Origin: Achromobacter sp. AONIH1 | GTDB taxonomy: Bacteria; Pseudomonadota; Gammaproteobacteria; Burkholderiales; Burkholderiaceae_B | Direction of reading: 5' to 3' | Length of the DNA stretch: 64,000 nucleotides | Assembly: GCF_002902905.1 (NCBI RefSeq) | Contig: NZ_CP026124.1 | Coordinates: 558,001-622,000, forward strand | Shown here: piece by piece, positions 1 to 51,266 of the stretch | Position numbering within the stretch: position 1 is the first letter of the stretch | Layout of the letters: each line of letters opens with the position of its first letter | The notes under the pieces: model-generated | The model's database searches: none | What the model was told of the DNA's origin: nothing | What the model saw: only the letters and a program-made list of their open reading frames with translations | Position numbers and translations under genes: made by a program

Positions 1-569
1 GTGCCCGGCGCTTCCGTAACGATGCGGCTGTCGGCGGCCGAAATTCGCGCGCCCTCCCTCATGGCAAGCAGACCGCTGGCATAGGTGCCATGCGTCAGGA
101 TGGAGGAATTGATCAGCTCGACCCTGGCATCGGCGCCGTTCGCCAGGGCCCCTATCCCGCCATTGCCGAAGGTCTCGACGGCTACCCCCGTGACATCGAT
201 ACGCGCGGGACCATTGGAAGAATTGGCATTCAGCCCGAGACCATCGTTGTCGTGGACGGTCACCGTGCTATCCCGCAACGTGGCCGCGCCACCCTGGACG
301 ACGACCCCGCCCCCCGGAGCGTTCGGCGCTCCGGAATCGCTGACGATGGTGATATTGCTGCCGGTCACGCTGTTGTCGCGACCCCGCACAAGAATCGCCG
401 GCCCCAGTCCACCGTGGAGGATGCTTTCACCCGGCAGGAGCACGCGATGGCGATCAGGCGAACGGTCATTCACGATGACCATCACCTCGTTGCCGCGACT
501 GACAAGGGGCAAGGTGACAAGCACTGCGCCGAGCAGCCCCGGCATGAGGAAAGGCGAATATCTGGACAT
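1..569 (-). CDS. Autotransporter-like surface protein, N-terminal part (3' end outside window)
   Basis: An open frame of 189 codons starts at ATG 569 and runs off the left edge without a stop. The first 35 residues contain a hydrophobic stretch (LMPGLLGAVLVTLPLVS), consistent with a signal peptide. The rest is rich in Gly, Asn, Ser, Thr and Asp, with short repeating beta-strand-like units such as NSVTGSNITIVSDSG and DSTVTVHDNDG. That is the look of a right-handed beta-helix passenger of the pertactin/AIDA type. The diagnostic C-terminal beta-barrel lies outside the window, so the class is inferred. A motif shared with the fimbrial operon lies about 136 bp upstream. A non-autotransporter beta-helix protein is the main alternative. 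Confidence 0.6.
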   Translation of the reverse strand, partial: MSRYSPFLMPGLLGAVLVTLPLVSRGNEVMVIVNDRSPDRHRVLLPGESILHGGLGPAILVRGRDNSVTGSNITIVSDSGAPNAPGGGVVVQGGAATLRDSTVTVHDNDGLGLNANSSNGPARIDVTGVAVETFGNGGIGALANGADARVELINSSILTHGTYASGLLAMREGARISAADSRIVTEAPG

Positions 570-705
570 GAAGGATTCCTGGTCGTGGCGGACTCTTGCA
601 CGCCCACCACTCAAGCCTGCCAGGCATTCTGAGGATGCGGCCGCGTCCGCAACGGCCTTTGTGTTGCGCTAAGCGACACGATTCCAGTATTTCTAGCCCA
701 GGAAT

Positions 706-719
706 ATCAGACAGTTCTG
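706..719 (-). promoter_or_regulatory. RcsB-box-like site upstream of the autotransporter-like gene
   Basis: On the minus strand this reads CAGAACTGTCTGAT and continues as ATTCC. It matches sites upstream of the fimbrial operon, the EAL gene and the small receiver gene (consensus CRGAAHYGTCTGAT). The extended block GTCTGATATTCCT is identical to the one upstream of the EAL gene. It lies 136 bp upstream of ATG 569. A -10 at the spacing used by the other copies (AATCGT, 678-683) is poor. Confidence 0.5.
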
Positions 720-37860: not shown

Positions 37861-40293
37861 TTACGACGCCGCCTTCCCGGGCGGAAGCTTGCGGCACACG
37901 GCCAGCGCGTCCTGATAGGGGCGATCCGGGTCCGGCTTGCCCTCGGGCGTGAACTCCAGATAGCACTTGCTGCCATCCTGCAGCGTCACCTGCAACGGCG
38001 CGGGATAGTCATCGTCCAGGAATATCTGTCCCTGCCGGCCGACCAGCGTCACCAGGTTGCCGCGTCCGTCCATCACCGGCAGGCGTTCGGCCAGCGGCTG
38101 CCGGTCGGTCTCCAGGACGGCGGATAGCAGGTAGCGCTGGACCTGCCGCAGATTGAAGTCCAGCACCTGCACCGAGCCGCGGGCCGGCTTGACCGATTGA
38201 ACGCCGTTCGGCAGGTTGGCGTTGCGCGGCAGGCTGGCAGTGCTGATTTCCACCGAGCTTTCGCCATAGGCCGTCAGTCCCGGAATCACGGCGTTGCCCC
38301 AGGCGTCCGTCCAGACCGGGCCCGAAGGCGTCTGGATTTCCACCCCGCCCAGGTCGCCGACCTTGGCGATGCCGAACGTGTCGCCCACCTCATAGGGCGA
38401 GAACGCCACCGCGCCACCCGCGCCCACCACCGAGCCCTGCACCCCCCAGTTCGTCGACACGCCGCCTTGCGAACCCCGGTTGGCGGACAGGTTGACGCGC
38501 GCGTAGCGCGGCATCGCGTCGATCGATGCCGACGAATTGACCGCGCCGTCGGGCCTGGCGACGCTCGAGCTGACGCTGTAGCTGAACTGCGGGCTGACGG
38601 TGTCGGAGTAAGTAGCGCCAACACTGCCGCTATTGCCTGACTTGCTGACATAGGTGCTGGCGCTGGCGCTGCCCAGGGGGAAGCTCAGCGTCAGGAAATA
38701 CTGGTTTTCCGATCGCGCCCGCGTGCCCGTGCTGAGATCCTTGGCCATGGACAGGCTGACCGAGGTGCGGGCGAAGCTCCGGTTCCAGGACAGCGTCGCG
38801 CGGTTGCGCTTGCCTTCCTGGCGGGACAGGCGGCTGGTGGTATAGGCTGCGGAAAAGGCGCCCAGGGTCGGGGAGAACCAGGACACGCCGGCGGTGTAGG
38901 TCTGGCTCGCGCTGGGCAAGATCCTGGCATCCGGGCGCGGCGCCTGCACCACCTGCGCCAGGTCGCGATAGCCTTCCGTCTGCAAGGTGGCCGACAGGCT
39001 CGTGGACAAGCGCTCGACCGGCGTGGCCGACAGGTTCGCCGTGATCTGCTGGCCCTGGAGCTTCTCGCCCGCGAAGCTGGCGCTGGACGCGCGCACGCCG
39101 ATCGAAGCGCTGAGCGCATCGCTGGGGTTGACTGAAACCCCGGCGGCCAGTGCGCGGTACGGGGCGGACACCAGAACGCCGGCGTTGAGGGTGCTGCGGC
39201 TGCCCAGGCTCCAGCCGTTGCTGACGGTGGCGACCAGCGGCGTCCGGCTGTCACTGCCGCGCGAGGCCTGGTAACGCCCCACCGCGGCGGACAGCCCTTG
39301 CGGGGCGACGTTGCGCACATTGCCGAACGACGCGGCCGGCACGACGAACTGCTGCCGTTCGCCGCTGGCGGCGATCACCTGGACCTCCAGGTCAGAATTG
39401 CCGCTGACGATGGGCACATCATTGATGGTGAAGGCGCCTGCCGGCACCTGGGTCATCAGGATCAGCCGGCCCAGCTGCCGCACCTCGATCCGGCTCTGGC
39501 CCGTGGCGATGCCGCTGAAGTTGACGCCCGAGGCCAGCGTCTGGCGCAGCGCCTGTTCGGGAAAAAGCTGCGCGCCGCGCAACGTGCCGACGGAGAACAG
39601 CGAACCGGCGGGCGAGATCTGGCCCGCCTGGAACGTCGAGCGCACGCTCGGCACGGCATGTTGCGCGTAGGTGTCGCCCTGCGTGAAGGTGGAGCGCCCT
39701 CCCTGTGAGTAATAGTCCTGGCGGCTGCGCAGGATCCAGTCGGCGATGTTCACGCCCGTTTCGGTATAGGCGCGCAGATACTGATAGCTCGAACCGCCGC
39801 TGGCGCTGCGCGAGCCGCTCACGTTGTAGTTCATCATGGCGGCGGCGCCGCCCGAGGCGTACTGCCCCTGGATCGACTGTTCGATGGGGGCGCGCGCCGC
39901 CAGCGGCGTCACGATATCGACCTGGGACTGGTTCGGCAGCTGCGTGATGGCGGTTTCCGGGTAGGCCTTGCGGTAATCCTGACAGGACTCCTCCGACGTG
40001 CCGTCCGGCACCTTCAGGCCAGCGCGCTGCAACAGCTCGGGCGTGAAACAGAGCGTGCCTTCATAGCTGAAGCGCACGTCCATCGTGCCCAGGTCCGTGC
40101 CGTTGACCACCAGGCGCACCCGGCTGACGCCGGGCAGAAAGCGCGCGGTCTTGCTGAAGTAGGCCGCGGCTTCGGGCGAGATGCCCAGCCGCTTCAAGGT
40201 TTGGGGATCGAACTGCTGCGCGAACGCGGCAGAGGAGACCGTCATGCAGAGAATCGCAGCCAGGCCCGCCGCCGCGTGCGCGCGCGGCTTCAT
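37861..40293 (-). CDS. Fimbrial usher (outer-membrane)
   Basis: An 810-residue PapC/FimD-family usher. A signal peptide (1-25), N-terminal chaperone-binding domain (FDPQTLKRLGISPEAA, VVNGTDLG), the 24-strand barrel with plug, and C-terminal domains (VGRQGQIFLDDDYPAPLQVTL) are present. It is somewhat shorter than classical 830-870-residue ushers. It assembles the DUF1120-like subunits encoded upstream. The start overlaps the chaperone stop by 4 bp. It is the last gene of the fimbrial operon. Confidence 0.93.
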   Translation of the reverse strand: MKPRAHAAAGLAAILCMTVSSAAFAQQFDPQTLKRLGISPEAAAYFSKTARFLPGVSRVRLVVNGTDLGTMDVRFSYEGTLCFTPELLQRAGLKVPDGTSEESCQDYRKAYPETAITQLPNQSQVDIVTPLAARAPIEQSIQGQYASGGAAAMMNYNVSGSRSASGGSSYQYLRAYTETGVNIADWILRSRQDYYSQGGRSTFTQGDTYAQHAVPSVRSTFQAGQISPAGSLFSVGTLRGAQLFPEQALRQTLASGVNFSGIATGQSRIEVRQLGRLILMTQVPAGAFTINDVPIVSGNSDLEVQVIAASGERQQFVVPAASFGNVRNVAPQGLSAAVGRYQASRGSDSRTPLVATVSNGWSLGSRSTLNAGVLVSAPYRALAAGVSVNPSDALSASIGVRASSASFAGEKLQGQQITANLSATPVERLSTSLSATLQTEGYRDLAQVVQAPRPDARILPSASQTYTAGVSWFSPTLGAFSAAYTTSRLSRQEGKRNRATLSWNRSFARTSVSLSMAKDLSTGTRARSENQYFLTLSFPLGSASASTYVSKSGNSGSVGATYSDTVSPQFSYSVSSSVARPDGAVNSSASIDAMPRYARVNLSANRGSQGGVSTNWGVQGSVVGAGGAVAFSPYEVGDTFGIAKVGDLGGVEIQTPSGPVWTDAWGNAVIPGLTAYGESSVEISTASLPRNANLPNGVQSVKPARGSVQVLDFNLRQVQRYLLSAVLETDRQPLAERLPVMDGRGNLVTLVGRQGQIFLDDDYPAPLQVTLQDGSKCYLEFTPEGKPDPDRPYQDALAVCRKLPPGKAAS

Positions 40294-41003
40294 TTCCCTG
40301 GTGTGGGCTTGCAGGCGCCCGACAAGGTGATTGCGTGGGTGCCCACGGCATAGCCGTAGACCGTGGCCGGCCAGATCGTGACCGTGCCGGCGGCGCCCGG
40401 CTGCTTGCCCTTGACGGGCAGCTCCAGGCGCTCGCCCGGCAGCAGGTAGGTCTTGGGCAGCGGCACGGCGATATTGCCGCTGTCCAGGCGCGCCTGCTGC
40501 GCCAGGCGCACCACGTAGGCGCTGTCATTGCACAGTCGCAGCCGGTCGCCGTCCACGGTCGCGGTCAGGCGCGTCCACGGATCCTTCAGCTTCTCCAGCG
40601 AACGCGGCTGGATGATCATGGGGATGTTCTGGCGAAAGGTGGTCTGGACCTGGTTGTCGGCGCCGCGCGCGAAGGGAATGCCCTCGAAGGACACGCGCTT
40701 GAGGCGCTGCGTGGCCAGCGGTCCCTTCTTGGTCAGCATGAAGCGCACCAGCTGGGACTGACCGGCCTCCAGCCGCGCCATGGGCGGGGTGGCGACGACC
40801 AGCTCCTCCTGGTCCTCGGCGATGTTCTCAATGGTGGTGTAGAGCAGCACGGGCGCCGTATCGGTGTTCTGCACGGTCATCGAGCCTTCGCCGGTGGCCT
40901 CGTCAACGATCAGCACGGAGCTTTCGGGAACGACGCCGGCGGCGCCGGCGGGATTGGTCAGCAACGCGCAGGCCAGGGAAACGCAGGTCAGGATGGTTTT
41001 CAT
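40290..41003 (-). CDS. Periplasmic fimbrial chaperone
   Basis: A 237-residue PapD-like chaperone. A signal peptide (1-21) precedes two Ig-like domains. The subunit-donating strand region LVRFMLTKKGPLATQRLKRVSFEGIP and the family motif QNIPMIIQP are visible, with LCNDSAYVVRL in the second domain. ATG 41003 is chosen over a TTG ten codons upstream. It is co-transcribed with the four subunits and usher. Confidence 0.9.
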   Translation of the reverse strand: MKTILTCVSLACALLTNPAGAAGVVPESSVLIVDEATGEGSMTVQNTDTAPVLLYTTIENIAEDQEELVVATPPMARLEAGQSQLVRFMLTKKGPLATQRLKRVSFEGIPFARGADNQVQTTFRQNIPMIIQPRSLEKLKDPWTRLTATVDGDRLRLCNDSAYVVRLAQQARLDSGNIAVPLPKTYLLPGERLELPVKGKQPGAAGTVTIWPATVYGYAVGTHAITLSGACKPTPGK

Positions 41004-41078
41004 AGCAATCAGCAGGAAAAAGGACGTGGTCAAGCCGGCCGTTGCCGGCCCGCGAAGAAGGTCATGGGGTAAGGCGGC

Positions 41079-41714
41079 CTACAGGAAAACGGCCGACAGA
41101 TCTATGGCACCGTCGAGCTGGACCTCGCGGCCCAGGTACAGCGTGGAGGTCGGCGCGATGGCCGCCTCGATCCGCACGCCGACGGTGAGCGTGCGGCCGC
41201 TGGACGGGCGACGCTGCGCGTCGCGGGTCCAGGCGATCAGGTCGTTGGCGTCCGGGGCCGCGTCTGCGTCCAGCTCGCGCCAGGTCGCGCCGCCGTCGGA
41301 CGATACGATCAGGCGCGCCGGCGAGCCGTCCAGCGTGGCGGTATCGCGCCGCCAGCGCAGCACGAACGCGCCCAGGTTCCTGCCGGCCGCCAGGCCCAGG
41401 CCCTGGCTGGCCTGCGGCGTCACGCCGAGCCGGCTGCTGGCCAGGGGACTGGCGCTGCCATCGCCGCCGGATTGGCGCAGCGCGACCGTCGCCGGCTGGT
41501 CGCAGCTGATGGTGATGTTGCGTTGTTGCGGCGGCAGCGGCGCGGCCTCGGCGGCGCGCAGCAGGTTGCGCTTGATCTTGCCGTAGTCGACCACGGCGCC
41601 GCCGCCCAGCTGGATGCGGCAATTGGCGGCTTGCGGCGCGGGAGAGGCGGCGAAACTCGCCGCGCTGAATGCAATACCCGTCAGGGCGTACAGGAAATTC
41701 AAGTAAGGCTTCAT
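41079..41714 (-). CDS. Fimbrial subunit, DUF1120-like (fourth, distal)
   Basis: A 211-residue exported protein. A signal peptide (1-22) is followed by the subunit pattern NCRIQLGGGAVVDYGKI and ITISCDQPATVAL, the two Cys forming the likely disulfide. It ends in a hydrophobic beta strand (DGAIDLSAVFL) with a penultimate aromatic typical of chaperone-bound subunits. Being the most divergent and last of four subunits, it may be a minor or tip protein. Confidence 0.82.
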   Translation of the reverse strand: MKPYLNFLYALTGIAFSAASFAASPAPQAANCRIQLGGGAVVDYGKIKRNLLRAAEAAPLPPQQRNITISCDQPATVALRQSGGDGSASPLASSRLGVTPQASQGLGLAAGRNLGAFVLRWRRDTATLDGSPARLIVSSDGGATWRELDADAAPDANDLIAWTRDAQRRPSSGRTLTVGVRIEAAIAPTSTLYLGREVQLDGAIDLSAVFL

Positions 41715-41752
41715 GGTCAGCCGGCTCTCCCGGCACGAGGCGGCGCAGGCCG

Positions 41753-42424
41753 CTAGAGATAGACCAGCGTCAGGACCGCGCCGCCGCTGAAGGGAACCTC
41801 GGTGGACACGCCAAGCTGGGCAATACGATCCAGCGCGACCTGGACGCGCATGGTGCCCTGGAATACGCTGCCGAAGGCCGGCTCCTTCAGGCCGGGCAGG
41901 CCCCAGGTTTCCAGGCTGCCGTCGTCATGGAAGAAATTGCCGACCGACGGGTCCCAGGACTTGCCGTTGTCGCCGCTGTAGATCGAGTCCGTGGCCTGGC
42001 CGTCCACCGTGAAGCCCGGAACCAGCATCAATGCCCAGGACCCGATGGCGCGCCCGGCCTCGTTGCGCAGGCCGTACTGGCGACTGGAGGACCAGCTCTT
42101 GCCATGCCCGCCGAAAAACACAATGGGATCCTTGAACGGCACCAGCCCGGCGTTAGGATCGCTGGCGGTCAGCGCCACCTTGGTCCTGGCTTCGCAGGAA
42201 ATGCGCAGTTCCCGCTCGAGCACCGGCAGCAGCGTGTACGTGTCCTTGTTCAGGTCCTTCAGCTTCAGCTTGCCGTAGTTGAACGAACCCTGCTCGGAAA
42301 CCTGCATCGTGCAGGCGGCAGGCTTGAGTTCGCCTTGCACCGCCACCTTGAAGGACGGGACTTGCGCGTATCCCGCCAGCGGCGCCATCGCGCAGGCCCA
42401 GGCGAGCAAAATTCGGAGTTTCAT
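41753..42424 (-). CDS. Fimbrial subunit, DUF1120-like (third)
   Basis: A 223-residue exported protein. The signal peptide (1-20) precedes VQGELKPAACTMQVSEQGSF and NYGKLKLKDLN, then LRISCEARTKVALTASD. These are the conserved Cys-containing strands of the DUF1120 family used by beta-clade chaperone-usher fimbriae. The C-terminus ends GGAVLTLVYL. It is shorter than the first two subunits and may be a minor pilin. Confidence 0.83.
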   Translation of the reverse strand: MKLRILLAWACAMAPLAGYAQVPSFKVAVQGELKPAACTMQVSEQGSFNYGKLKLKDLNKDTYTLLPVLERELRISCEARTKVALTASDPNAGLVPFKDPIVFFGGHGKSWSSSRQYGLRNEAGRAIGSWALMLVPGFTVDGQATDSIYSGDNGKSWDPSVGNFFHDDGSLETWGLPGLKEPAFGSVFQGTMRVQVALDRIAQLGVSTEVPFSGGAVLTLVYL

Positions 42425-42474
42425 ATTGGCAGGCTGTCGGCGGCCGGCGCGCCACGCGCGCCAACCGCCACGGA

Positions 42475-43293
42475 TCAGATGTAGCTGAGGACGAGGGTGG
42501 TGGTACCGTAGAACGCCAGATCGGAAGATATCTTCAGCGCCTCCTTCAGCGCCGTCTTCGACTGGATGACGGCGCCGATCACGATGTCGCCGCTAAACTC
42601 CTTCGCGGCCACCGGCACGGTGGACTGGCCGGACTCGGCGAAAGTCACGAACGTTGAGCCATCCGACTTCAGCTGCGAGGCGTGGGTCGCAGTATCCGCG
42701 GCCGTGGCCCAGGTCGCCTTGTCGGCGCTGGTCACGACCACGGTCTTGGTGGATTTCCCGTTCGCGGCCGTGGTCGTGTAGCGGAAATTGCGGAACTGGA
42801 AGACATACCGGCCGATGCGCTCCTTCGACGTTGCCTGGTCGACCAGATCGTAGATATAGCCTTTCTTGGCCTCGGCCACGATGCCCGTGGCCGTGTGCTT
42901 GAGCCCGTTTTCATCAGGAACCGCCAGATTACTGGAGCCGCCGACAGACAAGGCGATTGCCGCATCACCGCTCTCGCACGTGATGGAAAAGGATTGGACG
43001 GCAGGCGGCAGCGGGGTCTCGGCTGTGTCCTTCAGAGAATCGACATTGACCTTGGTTTCGTTGAATTTGATTTCGGCGAGGGTGGGCTTGCAGCTGCCCG
43101 GAGTGATCGTGCCGCCGACGGCGACGTTCAGGCTGCTGGGTGCAGACGCGGCGCCAGGGGCGCCAGCTGCGGCGGCAGCCGGCGCGGCCGGCGCACTGGA
43201 CTGTGCCGCAGCCGGCATCGACACGACCGTGGCTGCGCCAGCGGCGCATGCCAGGAGCGCGAGCAGGATCTTGCTGGATTGGATGTGTTTCAT
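42475..43293 (-). CDS. Fimbrial subunit, DUF1120-like (second)
   Basis: A 272-residue exported protein with a signal peptide (about 1-30) followed by an Ala/Pro-rich stretch (31-52) unusual for a pilin. The subunit core begins VAVGGTITPGSCKPTLAEI, with FSITCESGDAAIALSVG and the C-terminal strand TTLVLSYI. It closely resembles the first subunit (TITPGSCKP, YDLVD, FQFRNFRYT). A tandem duplication of the main subunit is inferred. Confidence 0.85.
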   Translation of the reverse strand: MKHIQSSKILLALLACAAGAATVVSMPAAAQSSAPAAPAAAAAGAPGAASAPSSLNVAVGGTITPGSCKPTLAEIKFNETKVNVDSLKDTAETPLPPAVQSFSITCESGDAAIALSVGGSSNLAVPDENGLKHTATGIVAEAKKGYIYDLVDQATSKERIGRYVFQFRNFRYTTTAANGKSTKTVVVTSADKATWATAADTATHASQLKSDGSTFVTFAESGQSTVPVAAKEFSGDIVIGAVIQSKTALKEALKISSDLAFYGTTTLVLSYI

Positions 43294-43339: not shown

Positions 43340-44050
43340 TCAGAGGTAGTTCAGCGTGATGGTCGCGCCGCCGGAGATCTTGAGGTCGCCAGTCAATTTC
43401 AGGTCCTTCTTGGGCAGGATCGCCGGCGCCACGATCAGCTCGCCTTCGAATGTCGAGGCCAGGACGGGCGTGGTGTCGGCGGTGGGACTGGCAAAAGACA
43501 GATAGTCGGAACCGTTCGTCTTGAGCTGCCAGGCATCCCAGCCGTTCGATGCCGCGGTAGACCACGCGTTCTTGTCGGTGCTCTTGATGATCACGGCCTT
43601 GTTGGTGGAGGCTCCCGTGCCGCCGCCCGTGTACGAGAAATTGCGGAACTGCATGGCGAACACGCCGGCACGATTCTTGTTGTCGTCAACCAAGTCATAC
43701 TGCGATTGGGGGTAGGTAGACGTGCCAGCCTGGGTGTGTTCCAGATTCCCCGTGGGGGCCGTCGCCGCGCTGGCGGTTGTCTGCGCGCTCAGCGCGATCG
43801 AGGTATCGGCGGTGCAGGTGATCTTCACTTTTTGGAGGATCATCGGCAACTGGGTCATCTTGTCGTTGTTCAACGACTTCGGATTGATGTTCTTCATGTC
43901 GAACGTCAAATCGCCCGACTCCGGTTTGCAACTTCCCGGGGTGATCGTGCCGCTGACCGTGATCTTGAAGGAGGGAGCCTCGGCCATGGCGCCGGCGCTG
44001 GCGGCGCAGGCCAGGAGGGCGGCAAAAAGCTTGCTGGTACGGTGTTTCAT
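43340..44050 (-). CDS. Fimbrial subunit, DUF1120-like (first, probable major)
   Basis: A 236-residue exported protein (signal about 1-24, ending GAMA). The core contains VSGTITPGSCKPESGDLTF, KITCTADTSIALSAQ, FAMQFRNFSYTG and the C-terminal strand GATITLNYL. Its position first in the operon, behind the promoter region, makes it the likely major subunit. ATG 44050 begins a good signal; a longer frame upstream runs into the promoter and is rejected. The ribosome-binding site is weak. Confidence 0.86.
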   Translation of the reverse strand: MKHRTSKLFAALLACAASAGAMAEAPSFKITVSGTITPGSCKPESGDLTFDMKNINPKSLNNDKMTQLPMILQKVKITCTADTSIALSAQTTASAATAPTGNLEHTQAGTSTYPQSQYDLVDDNKNRAGVFAMQFRNFSYTGGGTGASTNKAVIIKSTDKNAWSTAASNGWDAWQLKTNGSDYLSFASPTADTTPVLASTFEGELIVAPAILPKKDLKLTGDLKISGGATITLNYL

Positions 44051-44054
44051 AGAT

Positions 44055-44224
44055 GTCTGATAAGCCAAGTAGGTACGTGTCGGAAGTCTCGTGCTGGGCT
44101 GCCCGGAACCAAGTAACGCCCGGCGCATTCATCACGGAAACTAAGGTAACAACCCGACACCGCACCGCACCATCAGACAATTCCGGTAGTAATGGTCCGG
44201 AAAAAAGTGACAGTCTTATCAGAC
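44055..44224. repeat. 10-bp inverted repeats flanking the fimbrial promoter region
   Basis: GTCTGATAAG (44055-44064) lies 4 bp before the first fimbrial start and its exact complement CTTATCAGAC (44215-44224) directly abuts the stop of the upstream binding-protein gene. The 150 bp between hold the whole fimbrial promoter. Two readings are possible: recombination half-sites of an invertible promoter, or a pair of response-regulator sites, since both contain the GTCTGAT core of the shared motif. Confidence 0.6.
44144..44185 (-). promoter_or_regulatory. Fimbrial promoter with RcsB-box-like site
   Basis: On the minus strand CGGAATTGTCTGAT (44185-44172) ends 22 bp before TTACCT (44149-44144), a weak -10. 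Transcription would start near 44137, with a leader of about 87 nt to ATG 44050. The EAL gene shows the same motif, the same 22-bp spacing and a leader of about 86 nt. The box would overlap the -35 region, a usual activator position. Confidence 0.6.
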
Positions 44225-45319
44225 CTACGGCGCCGGCTTCATGATGCGCGTCAGCCACGCCGCCCGCATATGGGACAGCTGGGCCGGCGTCACCCCAGCC
44301 CAGTCCAGCGGGATCAGCCTGGCGGCGACGCCCGGCGACAACAGCGGTATCCTGGCGCGCGCCGCCTCGCCAATCTTGGCCTTCTGGTTCGACGGCGCGT
44401 AGTACATCGCCTCGGCAAACGCCTGTTGCACCTGCGCGCCCAGTGAAAAATTGATGAAGGCTTGCGCCGCCTTGCCGTTGGACCGGCCGACGACCTGGGC
44501 GATCAGGATGGGCACGGCGACGGTTCCCTCACTGGGTACCGTCACGCCATAGCCGCTCAGGCTGTCCATCTGACTCTGGCTGCGGGAATTCCAACCCACG
44601 GCCAGCAGCACCTGCTTGCGCGCCACCAGCCAGTATTGATTCGGACGAGGCGTCCAGGTCTGGACATTGGGGCCGAGCTTCTCCAGGTACTCGAGGCCGG
44701 GATCCAGATCAGCGGCGCCATCAGGACTGCCGGCCAACCGATTGGCCAGCGCGGTCAGCGCGGTCAGCGCGATCATGCTGCCGTTGACGTTGGCATTGGT
44801 CGAAATGGCGATCTTTCCGCGGTGCTTGGGGTCCCACAACTCGCGCCAGCTCCTGGGCGGCTGCGCAAAGGCCGATTTGGCGTACACCAGCGCCATGGAG
44901 TCGTACATGGCCGGCAGCGCCCAGAATCCCAGCTCGCGGCCCATGGCGCCCAGGTCGGCGGCATTCGGCACGAGCTGTGGATTCATCTGCTCAAGCAGCC
45001 CTTCGCTCTGTGCCAGGCGGGCGTTGGGCGGATCCAGTATCACGACGTCGATGTTCGGCGTCATGCGCTGCGACCGCAGCACCGCCAGGGCATTGCGCGA
45101 GTCCCGGACCGCGTAATAGCGCACCAGGATACCCGGATGCGCGGCCTCGAACGGCCGGATCACCGTCCTCATGTACTTCTCGTCGAAGGCATCCACGCCA
45201 TAGGCCATGACGGTGATTTCGACAGGCGCCGCCGCCCGGCTCTCGCCAGGCGGCAGCGCCGACGCCAGGCCGGCGAGCGTCAGGCCAAGGAAACGGCGAC
45301 GGGGAAAACTGCGATTCAT
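44225..45319 (-). CDS. PotD-like periplasmic binding protein (orphan)
   Basis: A 364-residue substrate-binding protein of the spermidine/putrescine (PotD/PotF) type. The N-terminus has a twin-arginine-like signal (PRRRFLGLTLAG), so export by Tat is possible. The mature part shows VEITVMAYGVDAFDEKYMRT, DVVILDPPNARLAQSEGLL and WRELWDPKHRGKIAIST, typical of the family. No ABC permease or ATPase gene is nearby. It lies between the RcsB-like regulator (67 bp upstream) and the fimbrial operon on the same strand, suggesting a sensory role. Confidence 0.85.
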   Translation of the reverse strand: MNRSFPRRRFLGLTLAGLASALPPGESRAAAPVEITVMAYGVDAFDEKYMRTVIRPFEAAHPGILVRYYAVRDSRNALAVLRSQRMTPNIDVVILDPPNARLAQSEGLLEQMNPQLVPNAADLGAMGRELGFWALPAMYDSMALVYAKSAFAQPPRSWRELWDPKHRGKIAISTNANVNGSMIALTALTALANRLAGSPDGAADLDPGLEYLEKLGPNVQTWTPRPNQYWLVARKQVLLAVGWNSRSQSQMDSLSGYGVTVPSEGTVAVPILIAQVVGRSNGKAAQAFINFSLGAQVQQAFAEAMYYAPSNQKAKIGEAARARIPLLSPGVAARLIPLDWAGVTPAQLSHMRAAWLTRIMKPAP

Positions 45320-45386: not shown

Positions 45387-46031
45387 TCATTTGAAAAGGT
45401 CGTAATTGACGCCAAACATCACCAGCTCGTGATCCGTTTCCACGTCCAGCTTGCGCATCGCGGCGACCTTGTGCGTGCTGACCGTCTTGACGCTGCGATT
45501 CATGATGCGCGCGATCTCTCCCACCGACGTGCCCGCCAGGAAATGCCGCAGCACCTCCAGCTCCTTGGGCGAAAGGCGACCGATCCGCGTGGCCGCGTCC
45601 TGCGGGGCGCCAGGCAAGGAGGCCGCCAGGGAATGGGGCCCGCTGCGATACACCTGATTCCTCTCCAGCGTGTCCAGGGCCGTCAGGATTTCTCCCAGAT
45701 CGCGGCTCTTGAACACGACGCCGCTGACGCCCTCTTCATAGAGGCTGGCGACGATCACTGGCGAAGTGATCATGGTATGGATCAGGATGCGCACGTCGGG
45801 AAAGTTGCGGCGCAGGTACTGCACCAGCGCCAAGCCGTCGCTGTAGCCATCCTCGGACGGCATGTTGTAGTCGGTGATGATGACGTCGGGCGCCAGCTCG
45901 CGCGTCTTGCGGATCAACTCCGCGGCATTGGTGGCATCCCCGACGATCTGGTGGCGGCCGGCGCCTTCGAGCACATTGCGAACGCCGAGGATTACCACTT
46001 GATGGTCATCGGCCAGCAGGATTCGTGTCAT
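45387..46031 (-). CDS. RcsB-like LuxR-type response regulator
   Basis: A 214-residue regulator. The receiver has ADDH, phospho-acceptor Asp54 (IITDYNMP) and Lys108. The GDGLALVQYLRRNFP-like and LIHTMITSPV segments follow RcsB rather than NarL. The C-terminal LuxR helix-turn-helix reads RLSPKELEVLRHFLAG, then IARIMNRSVKTVS and KVAAMRKL, again close to RcsB. ATG 46031 has GGGAG upstream and is preferred to ATG 46046. The cognate kinase is the hybrid protein just upstream. Targets are probably the motif-bearing promoters listed here. Confidence 0.92.
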   Translation of the reverse strand: MTRILLADDHQVVILGVRNVLEGAGRHQIVGDATNAAELIRKTRELAPDVIITDYNMPSEDGYSDGLALVQYLRRNFPDVRILIHTMITSPVIVASLYEEGVSGVVFKSRDLGEILTALDTLERNQVYRSGPHSLAASLPGAPQDAATRIGRLSPKELEVLRHFLAGTSVGEIARIMNRSVKTVSTHKVAAMRKLDVETDHELVMFGVNYDLFK

Positions 46032-46098
46032 TCTTTTTGCTCCCATTTTGATGCTTTCGACAAGGCTTCCTGCGATCTTTCCGGGCAGGGCCCGGGGG

Positions 46099-49000
46099 CT
46101 ACAACTCCGTGAATCTTTCGGTCAACTGGGCCAGCGTGCTCTTGACCGCGTTCTCGAGCATCGCTGTCATTCCTTCCTCGGCGATCTTCTGTTCCAGCAC
46201 GCCGCAAAACCGCGCGATGTCCTCGGCGTTCATCACCGCCAGCGATCCGCGCATCCGGTGCAGGGTCGCGACGGCCGCGGGCGCGTCGCGCGCGGCCAGG
46301 GCCGCCCGCATCGACGCCATGTCCTCGCGCATGGTGGTATTGAAGGCCGCGCGCAAATGGCTGTCGAAGAGCTCCTTGGGCTTGGTCGGCGGCGGCGGTC
46401 CGGCGAATTTGGAGCCGATGATTCTCGCGCAGGCGGTGCTCAGCGCATCATGCAGCGTGCGCAGGTCCACCGGCTTCACCACCCATGCGTTCAGGCCGGC
46501 GGCGAAACCGGCATCCCGTTGCGTCTGCAGCGCGTCGGCCGTCAAGCCGATGATCGGCGCATTGGTGCTGCGGGCGCGCAACGTGCGCACCAGTTCATAG
46601 CCGTTCATCAACGGCATGTTCATGTCCGTGATCAGCACGTCGAATTCGTCAGCGCTCCAGCGCGCCAGCGTCTCCACGCCGTCCGCGCACAGCGTGACCT
46701 CGCAGCCCAGCTCCTCAAGCTGGCGCACCAGCAGATTCCGGTTGACCGGATTGTCCTCGGCCACCAGCACCCGCAGCCCCAGCCGCCGCAAACCAGCGTC
46801 CGGCCGGTATTCGGACCCGCCATGGCCATCGTCCCCGTCCGCTTCGGTTGCAGGCAGCTCGGCCGACGGCCGCTCGCGCTGCGCCAGCGCGACCGCTTCA
46901 ACGATGCTGTGCCGCAGATGGCTGGTGACATGTATTTCGGACAGGCTCCATTGCGGCTTGTCCGGTCCGTCTGGAATGCACGATACCCGCGGCCCATTCC
47001 ATTCGATCGGCGGCAGCCGCTCGGGCAGCAATTCCACCAGGATGCCGTCCCGCTTGGCGGGCACGCTGCTGCCGTGGATGGGCCGCGCGCTGGCGCCGGC
47101 CAGCACCAGCCACGCGCAAGTGTCCTGCGCCACGTCGGCGACCGGCGCGCGCACCCATACCGCGGGCGTGGGCGCGATTTCACCGCCACCGGCCAGGCGC
47201 GCGGCGTCCGCCGTCACCCGCAGCGGCAGCTGGAAGATGAACGTGCTGCCCCGGCCCGGACTGCTGTCCAGCGTGATGCTGCCCTGCATCAGCTCGCAAA
47301 GACTGTGGCAGATATAAAGCCCCAGCCCGGTACCGGGCATCGCATGGCCGGACGAACCATGGGCCTGGTAGAACGGCTGGAACAGCATCTGCTGCTGGCT
47401 CGCGGGTATGCCCAGGCCGGTGTCGGCGATACGCCATTCAAGCACGGCGCCGCCGTCCGCCTCGCCAGCCCTGACCAGGTCAATCCGCACCCAGCCGGCC
47501 TCGGTGAACTTGATGGCGTTGCTGACCAGGTTGTTCAGCACCTGCTTGATGCGCAGGGCGTCGCCGTGCGCATAGACCGGAATGTCCGTGGCGATGGTGG
47601 CGAAGAACTGCAGGCCCTTGGCGTCGGCGGTGGCCGCGTATGCCTGCATTACCTCCTCGGTGAGCGCGGCCGGATCCAGGCGCTGGTCCTTGAGCGTCAT
47701 CTGCCGCGATTCGATCTTGGAGACGTCCAGGATATCGTTGATCACGTTGAGCAGGCCGGCGGACGAGGTCTGTATGGTGCGCAGATAGCCGCGCTGCAGA
47801 TTGGTCAGCGGCGTGAGGCCAAGCAATTCCACCGTGCCCAGCGTGCCGTAGAGCGGCGTGCGGATCTCATGGCTCATGGTGGCCAGGAACACCGTCTTGC
47901 CCGCGTTGGCATCGTCGGCGGCGCGCTTGGCCTGCGCCAGCGCGGCCTGCACGCGCTTGTGGTCGCTGATATCGCTGAAGGTGGCAAGAATGACCTCCTC
48001 GCCCCGGTAGGTCAGGCGCGAAGCGATGAAGCTCAGGTGCCGGCCATTGATCTCGACATCGCTGACAGCGCCATCCGGCGCCAGGGCCAGCTGCCTGACG
48101 ATTTCCACGTCCCCCAGCCATTGCTCCGCCAGCTGGTTCTTGGCGACGACCTGCTGGTCGGAAATGCGCAGCGCGCAGACGGCAACGCGAGCCGCGTCGA
48201 TCACGGCGCGGTTGAAGGATTCGCTTTCGACCACCCGTTCGTGACTGGCCTGGGCCGGCCGCACCACCAGGTTCCGATGGCGCCGATACAGCACAATGCT
48301 GCCAACCACGCAGAGCAGCAGCAAGCCGACAAACGAAAGCGGCTGCCAGCGTGCGGCCTCGAAGAACCGATCATAGGGAACCAGATAGCCCGCCGCCCAG
48401 CCATCCTGGCACCAGGTGTCGATCAGCACCCCTTCCCGCCCAAAGCGCACATTGCTGTCCACCTCTTCCAGCGCGCCATGCTCGTGGGGGCCGTCGGACG
48501 CGGGAGCGAGGCCGGGCGTGGTGCCCAGGTACTGGAAATAGGTCCGGCCATATGCGGCGTCGCCGTTGTACACGTCGCGCATTTCGAAAAACGTGGCCAG
48601 CACCAGATTGCGCTTGGGAGTCTCGGGTGCCCACAAGGCATCCGGCAGTTCAATCGCGCTGTAGATGATGTAGCCGATCCGGTCCTGCCCGCTGCCCGGC
48701 AGGTTGACGTTGATCCATCGCAGCCCGCTGGGGCTGACTTTCGCCGTCTGGGTATAGATCAATTCCCGCACCCGGTTCGCCGACAGCGGACAGCGCCACC
48801 AGCGATGCACATCATCCGTCATGGAATCCTCGGAGCAGGGCACGGAGATGCTGAGAGGGCTGTTCAGGTCGAGCAGGAACACCTGCATCCCGGGCTGCTG
48901 CCAGGGACTGCGGTAGGACCCGTAGAGGTTCGACAGACCGGCCGCCACGGTCTGCAACCGCCGGCTGTAGTCGCCGCCAGTGGCCGAATCGTTGCGGCTG

Positions 49001-49374
49001 ACCTTGATGATGTACGGCATCGCCAGGCTCCCGCTCTGGCCTTCGTAGGTATAGGTGCTGGCGTCGCTGTCGATCAGCTCGAACGATGCGGGGCCGCCCT
49101 GCGCCAAGGTCAGGCTCAGCCGGGTGGCTTCATTCTTGATGGCGCGGGCCAGGAAAGACTCCTGCCCGTGCAGGTTGTAGGCCAGCTTCTGGAAGTGCTG
49201 CCGCGCATCCGTGCTGGCGACGTTGATCAGGCTGCTGATCATCCAGTAGCACAGGGCCAGCATGATGATGGCCAGGATCAGCGTGACGATGAACAGGACC
49301 TGCATGCGCAGCGAAACCCGCGCCAGGTCGCCGATGGAGGCGATGCGCGAATGCCGGGAGGTGGCGCGGATCAT
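46099..49374 (-). CDS. Hybrid sensor histidine kinase with receiver and HPt domains
   Basis: A 1091-residue membrane kinase. One transmembrane helix (about 25-48) and another (about 345-363) enclose a periplasmic domain of about 295 residues that I cannot classify. A PAS-like region (about 385-475) precedes HisKA with His502 (ATMSHEIRTPLYG). The HATPase (about 605-717) has NLVSNAIKF, DTGLGIP and GTGLGLYIC. A low-conservation segment (738-835) may be a degenerate receiver. The receiver follows (about 867-985; EDN, Asp917, Lys967), then HPt with His1039 (LHRMRGSL). The start overlaps the EAL stop by 4 bp. Confidence 0.93.
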   Translation of the reverse strand: MIRATSRHSRIASIGDLARVSLRMQVLFIVTLILAIIMLALCYWMISSLINVASTDARQHFQKLAYNLHGQESFLARAIKNEATRLSLTLAQGGPASFELIDSDASTYTYEGQSGSLAMPYIIKVSRNDSATGGDYSRRLQTVAAGLSNLYGSYRSPWQQPGMQVFLLDLNSPLSISVPCSEDSMTDDVHRWWRCPLSANRVRELIYTQTAKVSPSGLRWINVNLPGSGQDRIGYIIYSAIELPDALWAPETPKRNLVLATFFEMRDVYNGDAAYGRTYFQYLGTTPGLAPASDGPHEHGALEEVDSNVRFGREGVLIDTWCQDGWAAGYLVPYDRFFEAARWQPLSFVGLLLLCVVGSIVLYRRHRNLVVRPAQASHERVVESESFNRAVIDAARVAVCALRISDQQVVAKNQLAEQWLGDVEIVRQLALAPDGAVSDVEINGRHLSFIASRLTYRGEEVILATFSDISDHKRVQAALAQAKRAADDANAGKTVFLATMSHEIRTPLYGTLGTVELLGLTPLTNLQRGYLRTIQTSSAGLLNVINDILDVSKIESRQMTLKDQRLDPAALTEEVMQAYAATADAKGLQFFATIATDIPVYAHGDALRIKQVLNNLVSNAIKFTEAGWVRIDLVRAGEADGGAVLEWRIADTGLGIPASQQQMLFQPFYQAHGSSGHAMPGTGLGLYICHSLCELMQGSITLDSSPGRGSTFIFQLPLRVTADAARLAGGGEIAPTPAVWVRAPVADVAQDTCAWLVLAGASARPIHGSSVPAKRDGILVELLPERLPPIEWNGPRVSCIPDGPDKPQWSLSEIHVTSHLRHSIVEAVALAQRERPSAELPATEADGDDGHGGSEYRPDAGLRRLGLRVLVAEDNPVNRNLLVRQLEELGCEVTLCADGVETLARWSADEFDVLITDMNMPLMNGYELVRTLRARSTNAPIIGLTADALQTQRDAGFAAGLNAWVVKPVDLRTLHDALSTACARIIGSKFAGPPPPTKPKELFDSHLRAAFNTTMREDMASMRAALAARDAPAAVATLHRMRGSLAVMNAEDIARFCGVLEQKIAEEGMTAMLENAVKSTLAQLTERFTEL

Positions 49375-50561
49375 CGGGAGACGATGGGATTCCGTTTCAG
49401 GAAGCCCAGCAATAATTCCGGGGTCAGCGCGCGGGATATCAGGAAACCTTGCGCCATATCGCACTGCAGTTTCTTCAACAAGGCCAGTTGCTCCCAGGTT
49501 TCGACGCCTTCGGCCACCACGTTCAGGGCCAAGCGCCGGCCCAGCGAGACGATACTCTCGACGGCGGCCTGGGCACCTTCATCTGCCGTACAGCGGCTGA
49601 TCAGGGAACGGTCGATCTTGAGTTCGGTGAAGGGCGTGGAGACCAGGTTGAACACCGAGCTGTAACCCTGGCCGGAATCATCCTGGGCCAGGCCGAATCC
49701 CTTCATGCGCAGGCGGCAGGCGCCCGCGTAATAGTCGCTTATCGCATCCGTGGTCGAACCCTCGGTCAGTTCAAAGCAGATGTCCTGCGGGGTGCCGCCC
49801 AGGCGCATGACATGGTCGTACAGACGATCCGGCAGGTCGGCATTCTGCAACAGGTGCGTCGGCAGATTGACCGACACCTCCATCCGGAAATCATGCTGCT
49901 GCCACACATGCTGAGCGGTAATGGTCTGTGCGAGCATCGACAATAGCAGCTCATCTTCCAGCTCGTCCAGTATCAGGGCTGGCAGGAACTGGCCAGGCAG
50001 CAGCACGCTGCCATCGGGCAACACCCAGCGCACCAGCGCCTCCGCCGCCCTCACCGAGCCGTCGGCGATGCGCATCTTCGGCTGGAACCAAGCGCGCACC
50101 TCGCCCGAGGCCAGCGCATGCTGCAACGCGGAACGATCGAACACCTGGCCCGACACCAGCGACTCGGCCTTCAGCCGCGAGGCTGCCTTCAACTTGGCCA
50201 CCAGCGCGATGATGGCTTGCGGCTGGGCGGGCTTGGACAACTGATCGATGACCCGCATGCCCAAGGTCTTCGCGACCAGGCTGGCGCCGGAGATGAGGCG
50301 CTTGGGAGACGAGCTGATCACCGCCAGCAAGGGCGGCGCCTCGTAGGTGGACAAGCGCTGAATCAGCTGGACGCCGTCCAGCTCGGGCATGAGCAGATCG
50401 CTCAGGACCAGGTCATAGCGCTGCTGCTCCAGCAGGCTCAAGGCGTGACAGCCGTTCTCGGCCGTATCCACCTGCGCGATGCCAGCCTGTATGAACAGGC
50501 TTTTCAGATATTCGCGTTGCAATAGCTGATCATCGACGATCAAGACGCGATAAGACAGCAT
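49371..50561 (-). CDS. Receiver-EAL cyclic-di-GMP phosphodiesterase (RocR-like)
   Basis: A 396-residue protein. The receiver (about 1-125) has VDDQ, Asp55 (VLSDLLMP) and Lys110. The EAL domain (about 140-390) has E-A-L at 174-176, the Asn of VSVNLP, FELTE, QDDSGQGYSS, LKIDRSLI, VAEGVET and QGFLIS. All catalytic metal-binding residues appear intact, so active hydrolysis of cyclic di-GMP is likely. ATG 50561 is preceded by AAGGAG; a longer frame upstream is rejected. It is the first gene of the EAL-kinase run and has a motif-bearing promoter. Confidence 0.93.
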   Translation of the reverse strand: MLSYRVLIVDDQLLQREYLKSLFIQAGIAQVDTAENGCHALSLLEQQRYDLVLSDLLMPELDGVQLIQRLSTYEAPPLLAVISSSPKRLISGASLVAKTLGMRVIDQLSKPAQPQAIIALVAKLKAASRLKAESLVSGQVFDRSALQHALASGEVRAWFQPKMRIADGSVRAAEALVRWVLPDGSVLLPGQFLPALILDELEDELLLSMLAQTITAQHVWQQHDFRMEVSVNLPTHLLQNADLPDRLYDHVMRLGGTPQDICFELTEGSTTDAISDYYAGACRLRMKGFGLAQDDSGQGYSSVFNLVSTPFTELKIDRSLISRCTADEGAQAAVESIVSLGRRLALNVVAEGVETWEQLALLKKLQCDMAQGFLISRALTPELLLGFLKRNPIVSR

Positions 50562-50653: not shown

Positions 50654-50695
50654 ATTAGAGCGGGATGCCACGCCAAGGAATATCAGACGTTTCCG
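50654..50695 (-). promoter_or_regulatory. EAL-kinase operon promoter with RcsB-box-like site
   Basis: CGGAAACGTCTGAT (50695-50682 on the minus strand) ends 22 bp before TCTAAT (50659-50654), a fair -10. The leader to ATG 50561 would be about 86 nt. The block GTCTGATATTCCT is identical to that upstream of the autotransporter-like gene. Confidence 0.6.
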
Positions 50696-50738
50696 AATTG
50701 ATTCTCTCATTCACCCATGGGTGCTCCGGGAGGGTTTT

Positions 50739-50781
50739 AGGAACCGTCTGATTCCCGGATCCGTTGTCGCGTTCGGACAAT
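50739..50781 (+). promoter_or_regulatory. Divergent promoter with RcsB-box-like site for the small receiver gene
   Basis: AGGAACCGTCTGAT (50739-50752) ends 23 bp before GACAAT (50776-50781), a fair -10. Transcription would start near 50788, 23 nt before GTG 50811. The site is a divergent partner of the EAL-operon box, 43 bp away. Confidence 0.55.
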
Positions 50782-50810: not shown

Positions 50811-51266
50811 GTGACTCATTTCGCTTTCCTGCATACCCTGCATGTGCACGCCCAGCACATCGACCGCGCCGCACGCCTGGCGGCCAGCATTCGGGATTCC
50901 GTTTCCGCCATCTGCTTCTATGCCGAAACCCAGGCCAGCCTGTACGCGCGCGCCGGCGCGCCGGGCCGGCACTATCTGCTGGTCGAGGGCGAATCGGCCT
51001 GGCTGCAGCGCTTCTTCGCGATACCGCACTGTCCGCAGGTGTCCGGCGTGGTCGCGCTGGTGAACGACGACGCCGGTCCGGCCGACCTTGCCAGGCTCAT
51101 GCTGGCCGACGCTGACATCTGCCTGCAGGGCTCGGCGCATCCTCGGGTGATCCTGGCCGCCCTGTCGGCGCTGGCGCGCATGGAACGCCGCCTGCTCGTC
51201 GCCAGCGGCGGCGCGCCAACCCATGACGCGACGGAATACGGGCACGCTCCGCGAAGCGCACACTGA
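50811..51266 (+). CDS. Small degenerate receiver-like protein
   Basis: A 151-residue protein from GTG 50811. Its pattern (FAFLHTLHVHAQHIDRAAR, YLLVEGESAWLQRFF, GVVALVNDDAGPADLARLM, ADADICLQG then ALSALARMER) has the strand-helix rhythm of a receiver domain. The phospho-acceptor Asp and conserved Lys are missing and no DNA-binding domain follows. The start is uncertain because no ribosome-binding site is seen. It is divergent from the RocR-like gene and shares its box, so a partner or decoy role in the relay is possible but speculative. Confidence 0.55.
   Translation: MTHFAFLHTLHVHAQHIDRAARLAASIRDSVSAICFYAETQASLYARAGAPGRHYLLVEGESAWLQRFFAIPHCPQVSGVVALVNDDAGPADLARLMLADADICLQGSAHPRVILAALSALARMERRLLVASGGAPTHDATEYGHAPRSAH

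What the first reader, a model, noticed from the sequence alone, without database searches (positions are those of the whole stretch)
50654..50781. A shared 14-bp motif marks four promoters, including a distant autotransporter gene
The consensus CRGAAHYGTCTGAT occurs at 706-719, 44172-44185, 50682-50695 (minus strand) and 50739-50752 (plus), each oriented towards the gene it precedes. The fimbrial and EAL-operon copies end 122 and 121 bp before the start codon and 22 bp before a -10-like box. The motif fits 10 or 11 of 13 positions of the RcsB-box consensus as I remember it (MRGAWTMWYCTGR), and an RcsB-like regulator is encoded beside three of the sites.
Basis: partly seen in the sequence, partly recalled or inferred. 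Interest (0 to 1): 0.85.

Follow-up and report, generated by a model that had tools for sequence, protein, structure and literature searches.

The report
RcsB-type switch shared by adhesin promoters
A short DNA site, kept in the same place before several Achromobacter adhesin genes, looks like the docking site of an RcsB-type regulator encoded beside it, which probably turns on fimbriae, its own operon and a distant autotransporter adhesin together.

Summary
Three sites match CRGAAHYGTCTGAT exactly and are the only exact matches in the 6.65-Mb Achromobacter genome; the fourth (50739) has one mismatch. With C or A at position 1, the motif recurs exactly at 15 of 15 orthologous promoter positions in the five other Achromobacter genomes found with the neighbouring RcsB-like regulator, while most flanks diverge. 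A matrix built only from those relatives ranks the four window sites first, the autotransporter site top. Mostly, a -10-like hexamer lies 22-23 bp after the box and no good -35 is present. Three relatives have the box at a distant Csu-type pilus operon; autotransporter homologues in all five carry it or a variant. A paralogous regulator has its own box flavour with the same 22-bp geometry.

Best reading: the operator of an RcsCB-PvrR-like system, activating its own operon, fimbriae, a receiver-fold gene and, less certainly, the autotransporter. It is a new member of a known kind (P. aeruginosa RcsB-cupD). The autotransporter site is weakest: its -10 is poor.

The parts
706..719 (-). RcsB-type box CAGAACTGTCTGAT upstream of the autotransporter gene; AATCGT 22 bp downstream is a poor -10
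   Evidence: (top matrix score 30.0)
1..569 (-). 5' end of an autotransporter gene (likely ATG at 567-569; gene runs out of the window; the open frame, 884 codons from an upstream TTG, has an autotransporter beta-domain)
44172..44185 (-). RcsB-type box CGGAATTGTCTGAT of the fimbrial operon
44144..44149 (-). -10-like TTACCT, 22 bp after the box (TACCTT one base on)
43343..44050 (-). DUF1120 fimbrial subunit gene, start codon 44048-44050
37861..43293 (-). rest of the fimbrial cluster: usher 37861-40293, chaperone 40290-41033, and three further subunit-like genes 41062-41736, 41753-42424, 42475-43293 (only the middle one has an NCBIfam match)
44225..45319 (-). solute-binding protein gene between regulator and fimbriae; present at this place in 4 of 4 relatives compared
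45387..46046 (-). RcsB-like (LuxR/NarL-type) response regulator, here called RR1; candidate that binds the box
46099..49464 (-). RcsC-like hybrid histidine kinase with receiver and Hpt domains
49374..50561 (-). PvrR-like receiver-EAL protein (549 bits; model cut-off 580)
50682..50695 (-). RcsB-type box CGGAAACGTCTGAT of the pvrR-rcsC-rcsB-like operon
50654..50659 (-). -10-like TCTAAT, 22 bp after the box
50739..50752 (+). RcsB-type box AGGAACCGTCTGAT of the divergent gene
50775..50781 (+). GGACAAT: degenerate -10 here; TAGAAT in the five relatives
50811..51266 (+). divergent gene (GTG start chosen from the alignment), no Pfam family; predicted stand-alone receiver (CheY) fold

Best explanation
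The motif is the operator of the RcsB-like response regulator at 45387-46046 (RR1). Phosphorylated by the neighbouring RcsC-like hybrid kinase, an RR1 dimer would bind the imperfect dyad (RGAA ... TCTGAT) that takes the place of a -35 element and recruit RNA polymerase to a -10 placed 22-23 bp downstream. It thereby switches on its own pvrR-rcsC-rcsB-like operon, a divergent stand-alone receiver-fold gene, the fimbrial operon and, probably, the autotransporter 43 kb away. The PvrR-like EAL protein made from the same operon would lower c-di-GMP and limit the response, as in P. aeruginosa. Shown by sequence: the sites, their geometry, their conservation and their link to the regulator gene. Inferred: binding by RR1, activation rather than repression, dependence on phosphorylation, operon structure and the c-di-GMP feedback.
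For: Only exact matches in the genome. 15 of 15 orthologous positions in five relatives match MRGAAHYGTCTGAT exactly (four of the five are the named records). For the fimbrial, pvrR, divergent and Csu promoters the mean pairwise identity is 0.91-0.95 in the box against 0.33-0.44 in the 45 bp before it (rows were gathered by the pattern, so this is partly by construction; the 15 of 15 is not). Matrix from 18 sites of other genomes: the four window sites score 24.9-30.0, next 17.9, best of 20 simulated windows 16.1. A -10-like hexamer peaks at 22 bp over 22 sites, z about 6, with -10 weights of my own; -35 matches are 2 or 3 of 6 in 21 of 22 promoters and 4 in one. Same box before a Csu-type pilus gene in 3 of 3 genomes with a close relative of that gene. 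RcsB contact residues: K180 kept, S184 to Thr. In P. aeruginosa PA14 the GAA of the RcsB site in the cupD1 promoter is crucial for promoter function (PMC3842833, passages).
Against: No binding or expression data. RR1 scores below the NCBIfam RcsB cut-off (137 of 235 bits). A second RcsB-like regulator exists in the same genome. The autotransporter copy has a poor -10 at 22 bp (AATCGT), and this genome's divergent gene has GGACAA where relatives have TAGAAT. At the fimbrial promoter the spacer after the box is also conserved (0.81). Five one-mismatch sites elsewhere in the genome precede no adhesin that I saw, but their neighbours were only partly annotated.
Confidence: 0.8

Rival explanations
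1. The boxes are read by the second RcsB-like regulator (RR2, at 6464603 in this genome) or by another NarL-family protein, not by RR1.
For: 36 of 43 Achromobacter genomes have a match to RR1 at E<=1e-40, mostly RR2-type at 41-48% identity; autotransporter genes sit beside other RcsB-like clusters in G205, G228, G217 and G003.
Against: RR2 operons carry a different box, RAGATTCTTCTYAT: 19 sites in 43 genomes, 17 within about 8 kb of an RR2 gene. The RR1-type box is rare in genomes without RR1 (5 sites in 37 genomes). Recognition-helix residues differ (Thr-His in RR1, Gly-Gln in RR2).
Confidence: 0.1
2. The box is a repressor site: a protein bound at the -35 region blocks polymerase.
For: An RcsB box lying in the -10 and -35 regions represses gadA in E. 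coli (PMC5651002 passage); the box here touches the -35 position.
Against: The promoters lack a usable -35, as expected of activator-dependent promoters; RcsB activates cupD in P. aeruginosa (PMC2696094 and PMC3842833, passages).
Confidence: 0.12
3. The three cluster sites are real but the autotransporter site is a chance or decayed match.
For: Poor -10 at the fixed distance; autotransporter homologues in three RR1 genomes have another box flavour, AAGAATCGTCTTAT; of 15 homologous loci scanned only 6 had a box within one mismatch.
Against: Best score in the window with a matrix trained without it; homologues in two relatives keep CAGAGTTGTCTGAT followed 22 bp later by CATCAT; autotransporter genes sit beside RcsB-like clusters elsewhere in the genus.
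Confidence: 0.2

Closest known systems
P. aeruginosa PA14 RcsB-RcsC-PvrR-PvrS / cupD system (PMC2696094, PMC3842833; passages)
   Same: RcsB-like regulator, RcsC-like kinase with Hpt, PvrR-like EAL regulator and a chaperone-usher operon side by side; an RcsB site with a crucial GAA before the fimbrial gene; among RcsB-induced genes one (PA1468) for a protein without recognised domain that models as a receiver.
   Different: One hybrid kinase in this cluster instead of two; an extra solute-binding protein gene; the box also precedes the pvrR-like operon, a divergent receiver-fold gene and an autotransporter gene; the cupD1 site lies at about -78 from the ORF, here about 120-137.
P. aeruginosa Roc system: RocA1/A2/A3, RocS, RocR with cupC, cupB and lepBA (PMC12051241; abstract and passages)
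   Same: Paralogous activators with an EAL-type antagonist controlling fimbriae together with a secretion operon.
   Different: The Roc paralogues are described as having similar DNA-binding sequences; here two paralogues appear to have distinct box flavours.
Enterobacterial RcsB / RcsAB box (PMC5829831, PMC4325325, PMC5651002; passages)
   Same: Dyad with AG/GA near one end and TC near the other; homodimer sites usually upstream of the -35; conserved base-contacting Lys.
   Different: Box reads MRGAAHYGTCTGAT rather than TaAGaatatTCcta; S184 is Thr and Q185 is His; RcsA, RcsD and IgaA were not looked for.

Membership tests
RcsB-type response regulator | Receiver plus LuxR/GerE helix-turn-helix with RcsB as nearest family | tested here: met
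   Response_reg and GerE; best NCBIfam model RcsB PRK10840; best PDB sequences RcsB, E 1.2e-34
RcsB (NCBIfam equivalog PRK10840) | Score above the curated cut-off | tested here: not met
   137.3 of 235 bits; so RcsB-like, not filed as RcsB
RcsB-type response regulator | DNA-contact residues of RcsB kept | tested here: inconclusive
   Of 11 named residues 7 identical (S152, K154, R177, K180, T181, S183, K186); S184 to T; T169G, Q185H, K187V differ
RcsB/RcsAB box | Binding by the regulator | not testable with these tools
   needs gel shift or ChIP
RcsB homodimer promoter | Box directly upstream of the -35 position, no good -35 | tested here: met
   22 or 23 bp from box to -10-like hexamer at most sites; -35 matches 2-3 of 6 in 21 of 22; the autotransporter site here has a poor -10
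RcsCB-PvrR fimbrial system of P. aeruginosa | Regulator, hybrid kinase, PvrR-like and chaperone-usher genes together | tested here: met
   same order in 4 of 4 relatives compared
PvrR (NCBIfam NF052596) | Score above the curated cut-off | tested here: not met
   549.2 of 580 bits, protein 1-389 on profile 1-390 of 398; PvrR-like
Stand-alone receiver (divergent gene) | Receiver fold | tested here: met
Stand-alone receiver (divergent gene) | Pfam Response_reg match | tested here: not met
   no Pfam family at E<=1

The most novel reading that the evidence does not exclude
Achromobacter carries two paralogous RcsB-type regulators that have split one ancestral operator into two codes (GTCTGAT-type and TTCTYAT-type) on the same promoter chassis (box, 22 bp, -10), tracked by two neighbouring recognition-helix residues (Thr-His against Gly-Gln). 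Through these boxes fimbriae, Csu-type pili and autotransporters are wired to one or other regulator, so that a strain's surface repertoire follows the box flavour of each adhesin promoter.
Probability: 0.4. Interest if true: 0.65.

Novelty: new member of a known kind. Interest (0 to 1): 0.5.

Why it matters
It gives an RcsB-PvrR type system outside Pseudomonas a well-defined operator with fixed promoter geometry, which makes its regulon predictable from sequence. It ties chaperone-usher fimbriae, a Csu-type pilus and probably autotransporters in an opportunistic genus to one signalling cluster, and the two paralogues offer a natural comparison of how sister regulators keep their targets apart. 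In the listings of my paper searches (open-access library, the first 8 to 20 papers of each) I saw no report of this system in Achromobacter; papers outside that library and further down the lists were not seen.

Tried and rejected
Chance: rejected by the genome count, shuffles at exact match and the matrix that leaves this genome out; at up to two mismatches the window count alone would not exclude chance. Repeat or mobile element: not supported, as the sequence before the box diverges between genomes. Motif common in coding regions: not so at tight match (3 exact in 6.65 Mb; 29 sites of the slightly wider pattern in 43 genomes, 24 of them in the six with RR1). Two of those 24 (G098:C6:45898 and G215:C17:99010) stand at no adhesin promoter that I recognised; the second has near-identical surroundings in G206, which lacks RR1, so it is not RR1-linked.

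A geometry search, RGANNNGTCTGAT then 22-23 bp then NANNNT, in 43 genomes listed 38 places in 19 genomes: 18 in the six with RR1 and 20 in the other 37. Beyond promoters already known it gave mainly scattered hits, so it does not extend the regulon. One candidate in G221:C45 was looked at and left open. A one-mismatch site upstream of a LysR-type gene at 4448330 was not pursued. The class-wide search (369 genomes) gave one genome besides this one at E<=1e-45, and its region has one box-like sequence (score 13.2) without a -10 at 22 bp. Plasmid searches with the regulator and PvrR gave only relatives below 60% identity and were not used. The P. aeruginosa cupD promoter itself was not retrieved; that comparison rests on the papers. 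PMC8041468 was opened but named RcsB only in its reference list. Of 15 autotransporter loci scanned, L136 and L137 had no upstream sequence in the fetched locus.

Full report
What is there. The window (C1:558001-622000 of a 6,648,943-bp single-contig genome) comes from Achromobacter, judged by close orthologues of the regulator in four named Achromobacter records. The pattern CRGAAHYGTCTGAT is present exactly three times in the whole genome, all in this window: 706-719, 44172-44185 and 50682-50695, all on the minus strand. The fourth site, 50739-50752 on the plus strand, differs at the first base. Each points at a gene: an autotransporter gene that runs out of the window on the left, the first gene of a DUF1120-type fimbrial cluster, a PvrR-like EAL gene followed by an RcsC-like kinase and the RcsB-like regulator RR1, and a divergent gene of 151 codons.

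Is it more than chance. Shuffled windows give 0.01 exact matches on average. At up to two mismatches 5 of 100 shuffles reach the window's count of 5, and the genome has 180 sites against 73 for the reversed pattern, so loose matches are mostly background while tight ones are not. A matrix was made from 18 sites of five other genomes only, without any autotransporter site. On the window it ranked the four reported sites first (706: 30.0; 44172: 29.1; 50735, which is the 50739 site with four leading bases: 28.3; 50682: 24.9), then 17.9 for a hit over the fimbrial start; the best score in 20 first-order simulated windows was 16.1.

Conservation. Of 43 Achromobacter genomes searched, six carry an RR1 orthologue (83% identity or more): this one and G098, G215, G221, G223, G229. 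With the pattern MRGAAHYGTCTGAT those six hold 4, 5, 5, 3, 4 and 3 exact sites in the order G000, G098, G215, G221, G223, G229; the other 37 hold 5 in total; the reversed pattern gives 2 in 43. Three or more sites: 6 of 6 against 0 of 37 (Fisher 1.6e-7). This must be read with care, because three sites per genome lie within the cluster that defines the group, and the genomes are related. The stronger fact is that 15 of 15 orthologous promoter positions in the five relatives match exactly, while the 45 bp before the box share 0.33-0.44 pairwise identity at the fimbrial, pvrR, divergent and Csu promoters. At the fimbrial promoter the spacer is conserved too (0.81). Of the 24 sites, 18 are the three cluster promoters, 3 lie before a Csu-type (SCPU) pilus subunit gene on other contigs (97-105 bp before its ATG; SCPU), 1 is the autotransporter site here, and 2 have no recognised target. 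A close relative of that Csu-type subunit occurs in three of the 43 genomes, all with RR1, and has the box in 3 of 3 (a 41% match in G210 was not examined).

Geometry. After the box come 22 bp and a -10-like hexamer: TCTAAT at pvrR in 5 of 6 genomes (TCCAAT in G229), TAGAAT at the divergent gene in 5 of 6 (GGACAA here), TGTAAT at the Csu-type gene in 3 of 3, and TACCTT at 23 bp at the fimbrial operon in 6 of 6. Pooled over 22 sites the -10 score peaks at 22 bp, z about 6, with weights of my own. At the matching -35 position there are 2 or 3 of 6 consensus bases in 21 of 22 promoters and 4 in one. The box therefore sits where an activator that replaces the -35 contact would sit; RcsB homodimer sites are described as usually upstream of the -35 (PMC5651002, passage).

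The autotransporter. Its site is the best-scoring of the four, but AATCGT at 22 bp is a poor -10. Homologues in G221 and G223 (52-54% identity) have CAGAGTTGTCTGAT, 22 bp, CATCAT; those in G098, G215 and G229 have AAGAATCGTCTTAT, 22 bp, CACCAT. Of 15 homologous loci scanned, 6 had a box within one mismatch. By eye, G205, G228, G217 and G181 have further variants, and the one in G217 reads TAAGAATATTCCTA, the letters of the published RcsAB consensus (PMC4325325, figure legend). In G205, G228 and G217 an RcsB-like regulator, two kinases and a PvrR-like gene lie beside the autotransporter gene, and in G003 a more distant regulator (37%) and a kinase do. So linkage of RcsB-like regulators to autotransporters recurs in the genus, which raises the likelihood that the site here works.

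Two regulators, two boxes. Most Achromobacter genomes searched carry a paralogue, RR2 (about 41-48% identity). Starting from two RR2 operon promoters I searched RAGATTCTTCTYAT: 19 sites in 18 of 43 genomes, 0 for the reversed control, 17 of them within about 8 kb of an RR2 gene, and 18 of 19 with a TA..AT hexamer exactly 22 bp on. The other two sites are in G224 (57% complete, no RR2 found) and a second site in G215. In the recognition helix, the residues aligned with E. coli RcsB S184 and Q185 are Thr-His in 5 of 5 RR1 proteins aligned and Gly-Gln in 5 of 5 RR2-type proteins (Ala-Gln in G181; the sixth RR1, of G223, was not in that alignment). The contacts come from PMC5829831 (passages); the numbering on the alignment is my count. 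That these residues set the box flavour is my inference.

Mechanism and standing. I take the box as the RR1 operator, activating its own operon, the receiver-fold gene, the fimbriae and probably the autotransporter, with the PvrR-like protein as built-in antagonist. Sites, geometry, conservation and linkage are shown; binding, activation and the c-di-GMP loop are inferred from the P. aeruginosa RcsB-PvrR-cupD work (PMC2696094 and PMC3842833, passages). The system is a new member of that kind; the wider regulon and the two box flavours are its new points.

Noticed in passing
window 44225-45319: A solute-binding protein gene sits alone between the regulator and the fimbriae, and at the same place in 4 of 4 relatives compared; it may feed a signal to the kinase.
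   Followed up: no
window 50811-51266: Divergent gene encodes a predicted stand-alone receiver fold with no Pfam match and a Glu invariant in 15 sequences near the usual phospho-Asp position.
   Followed up: partly
L167 (G000:C1:6457001-6473000): Second RcsB-like regulator with kinase, PvrR-like and kinase genes; upstream of them AAGATTCTTCTCAT, 22 bp, TACCAT.
   Followed up: partly
L165 (G217:C35:14001-32000), about 1513: Autotransporter promoter carrying TAAGAATATTCCTA, the letters of the published enterobacterial RcsAB consensus, near an RcsB-like cluster.
   Followed up: partly
window 44048-44061 (+) and 44215-44224 (-): Further GTCTGAT sequences around the fimbrial promoter, one over the start codon and one upstream; possible extra contacts.
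   Followed up: no
L034 7330-7343 (G000:C1:4448330): CAGATTTGTCTGAT upstream of a LysR-type gene, with GAAGAT 22 bp on.
   Followed up: no
L188 11773 (-) (G097:C1:1838001-1856000): In another genus of the family, AGGAATAGTCTTAT, 22 bp, TTAAAT near an RcsB-like and usher-containing cluster.
   Followed up: no
window 697-712 and 50673-50688 (-): The autotransporter and pvrR sites share identity beyond the box: GTCTGATATTCCT, one differing base, GG.
   Followed up: no
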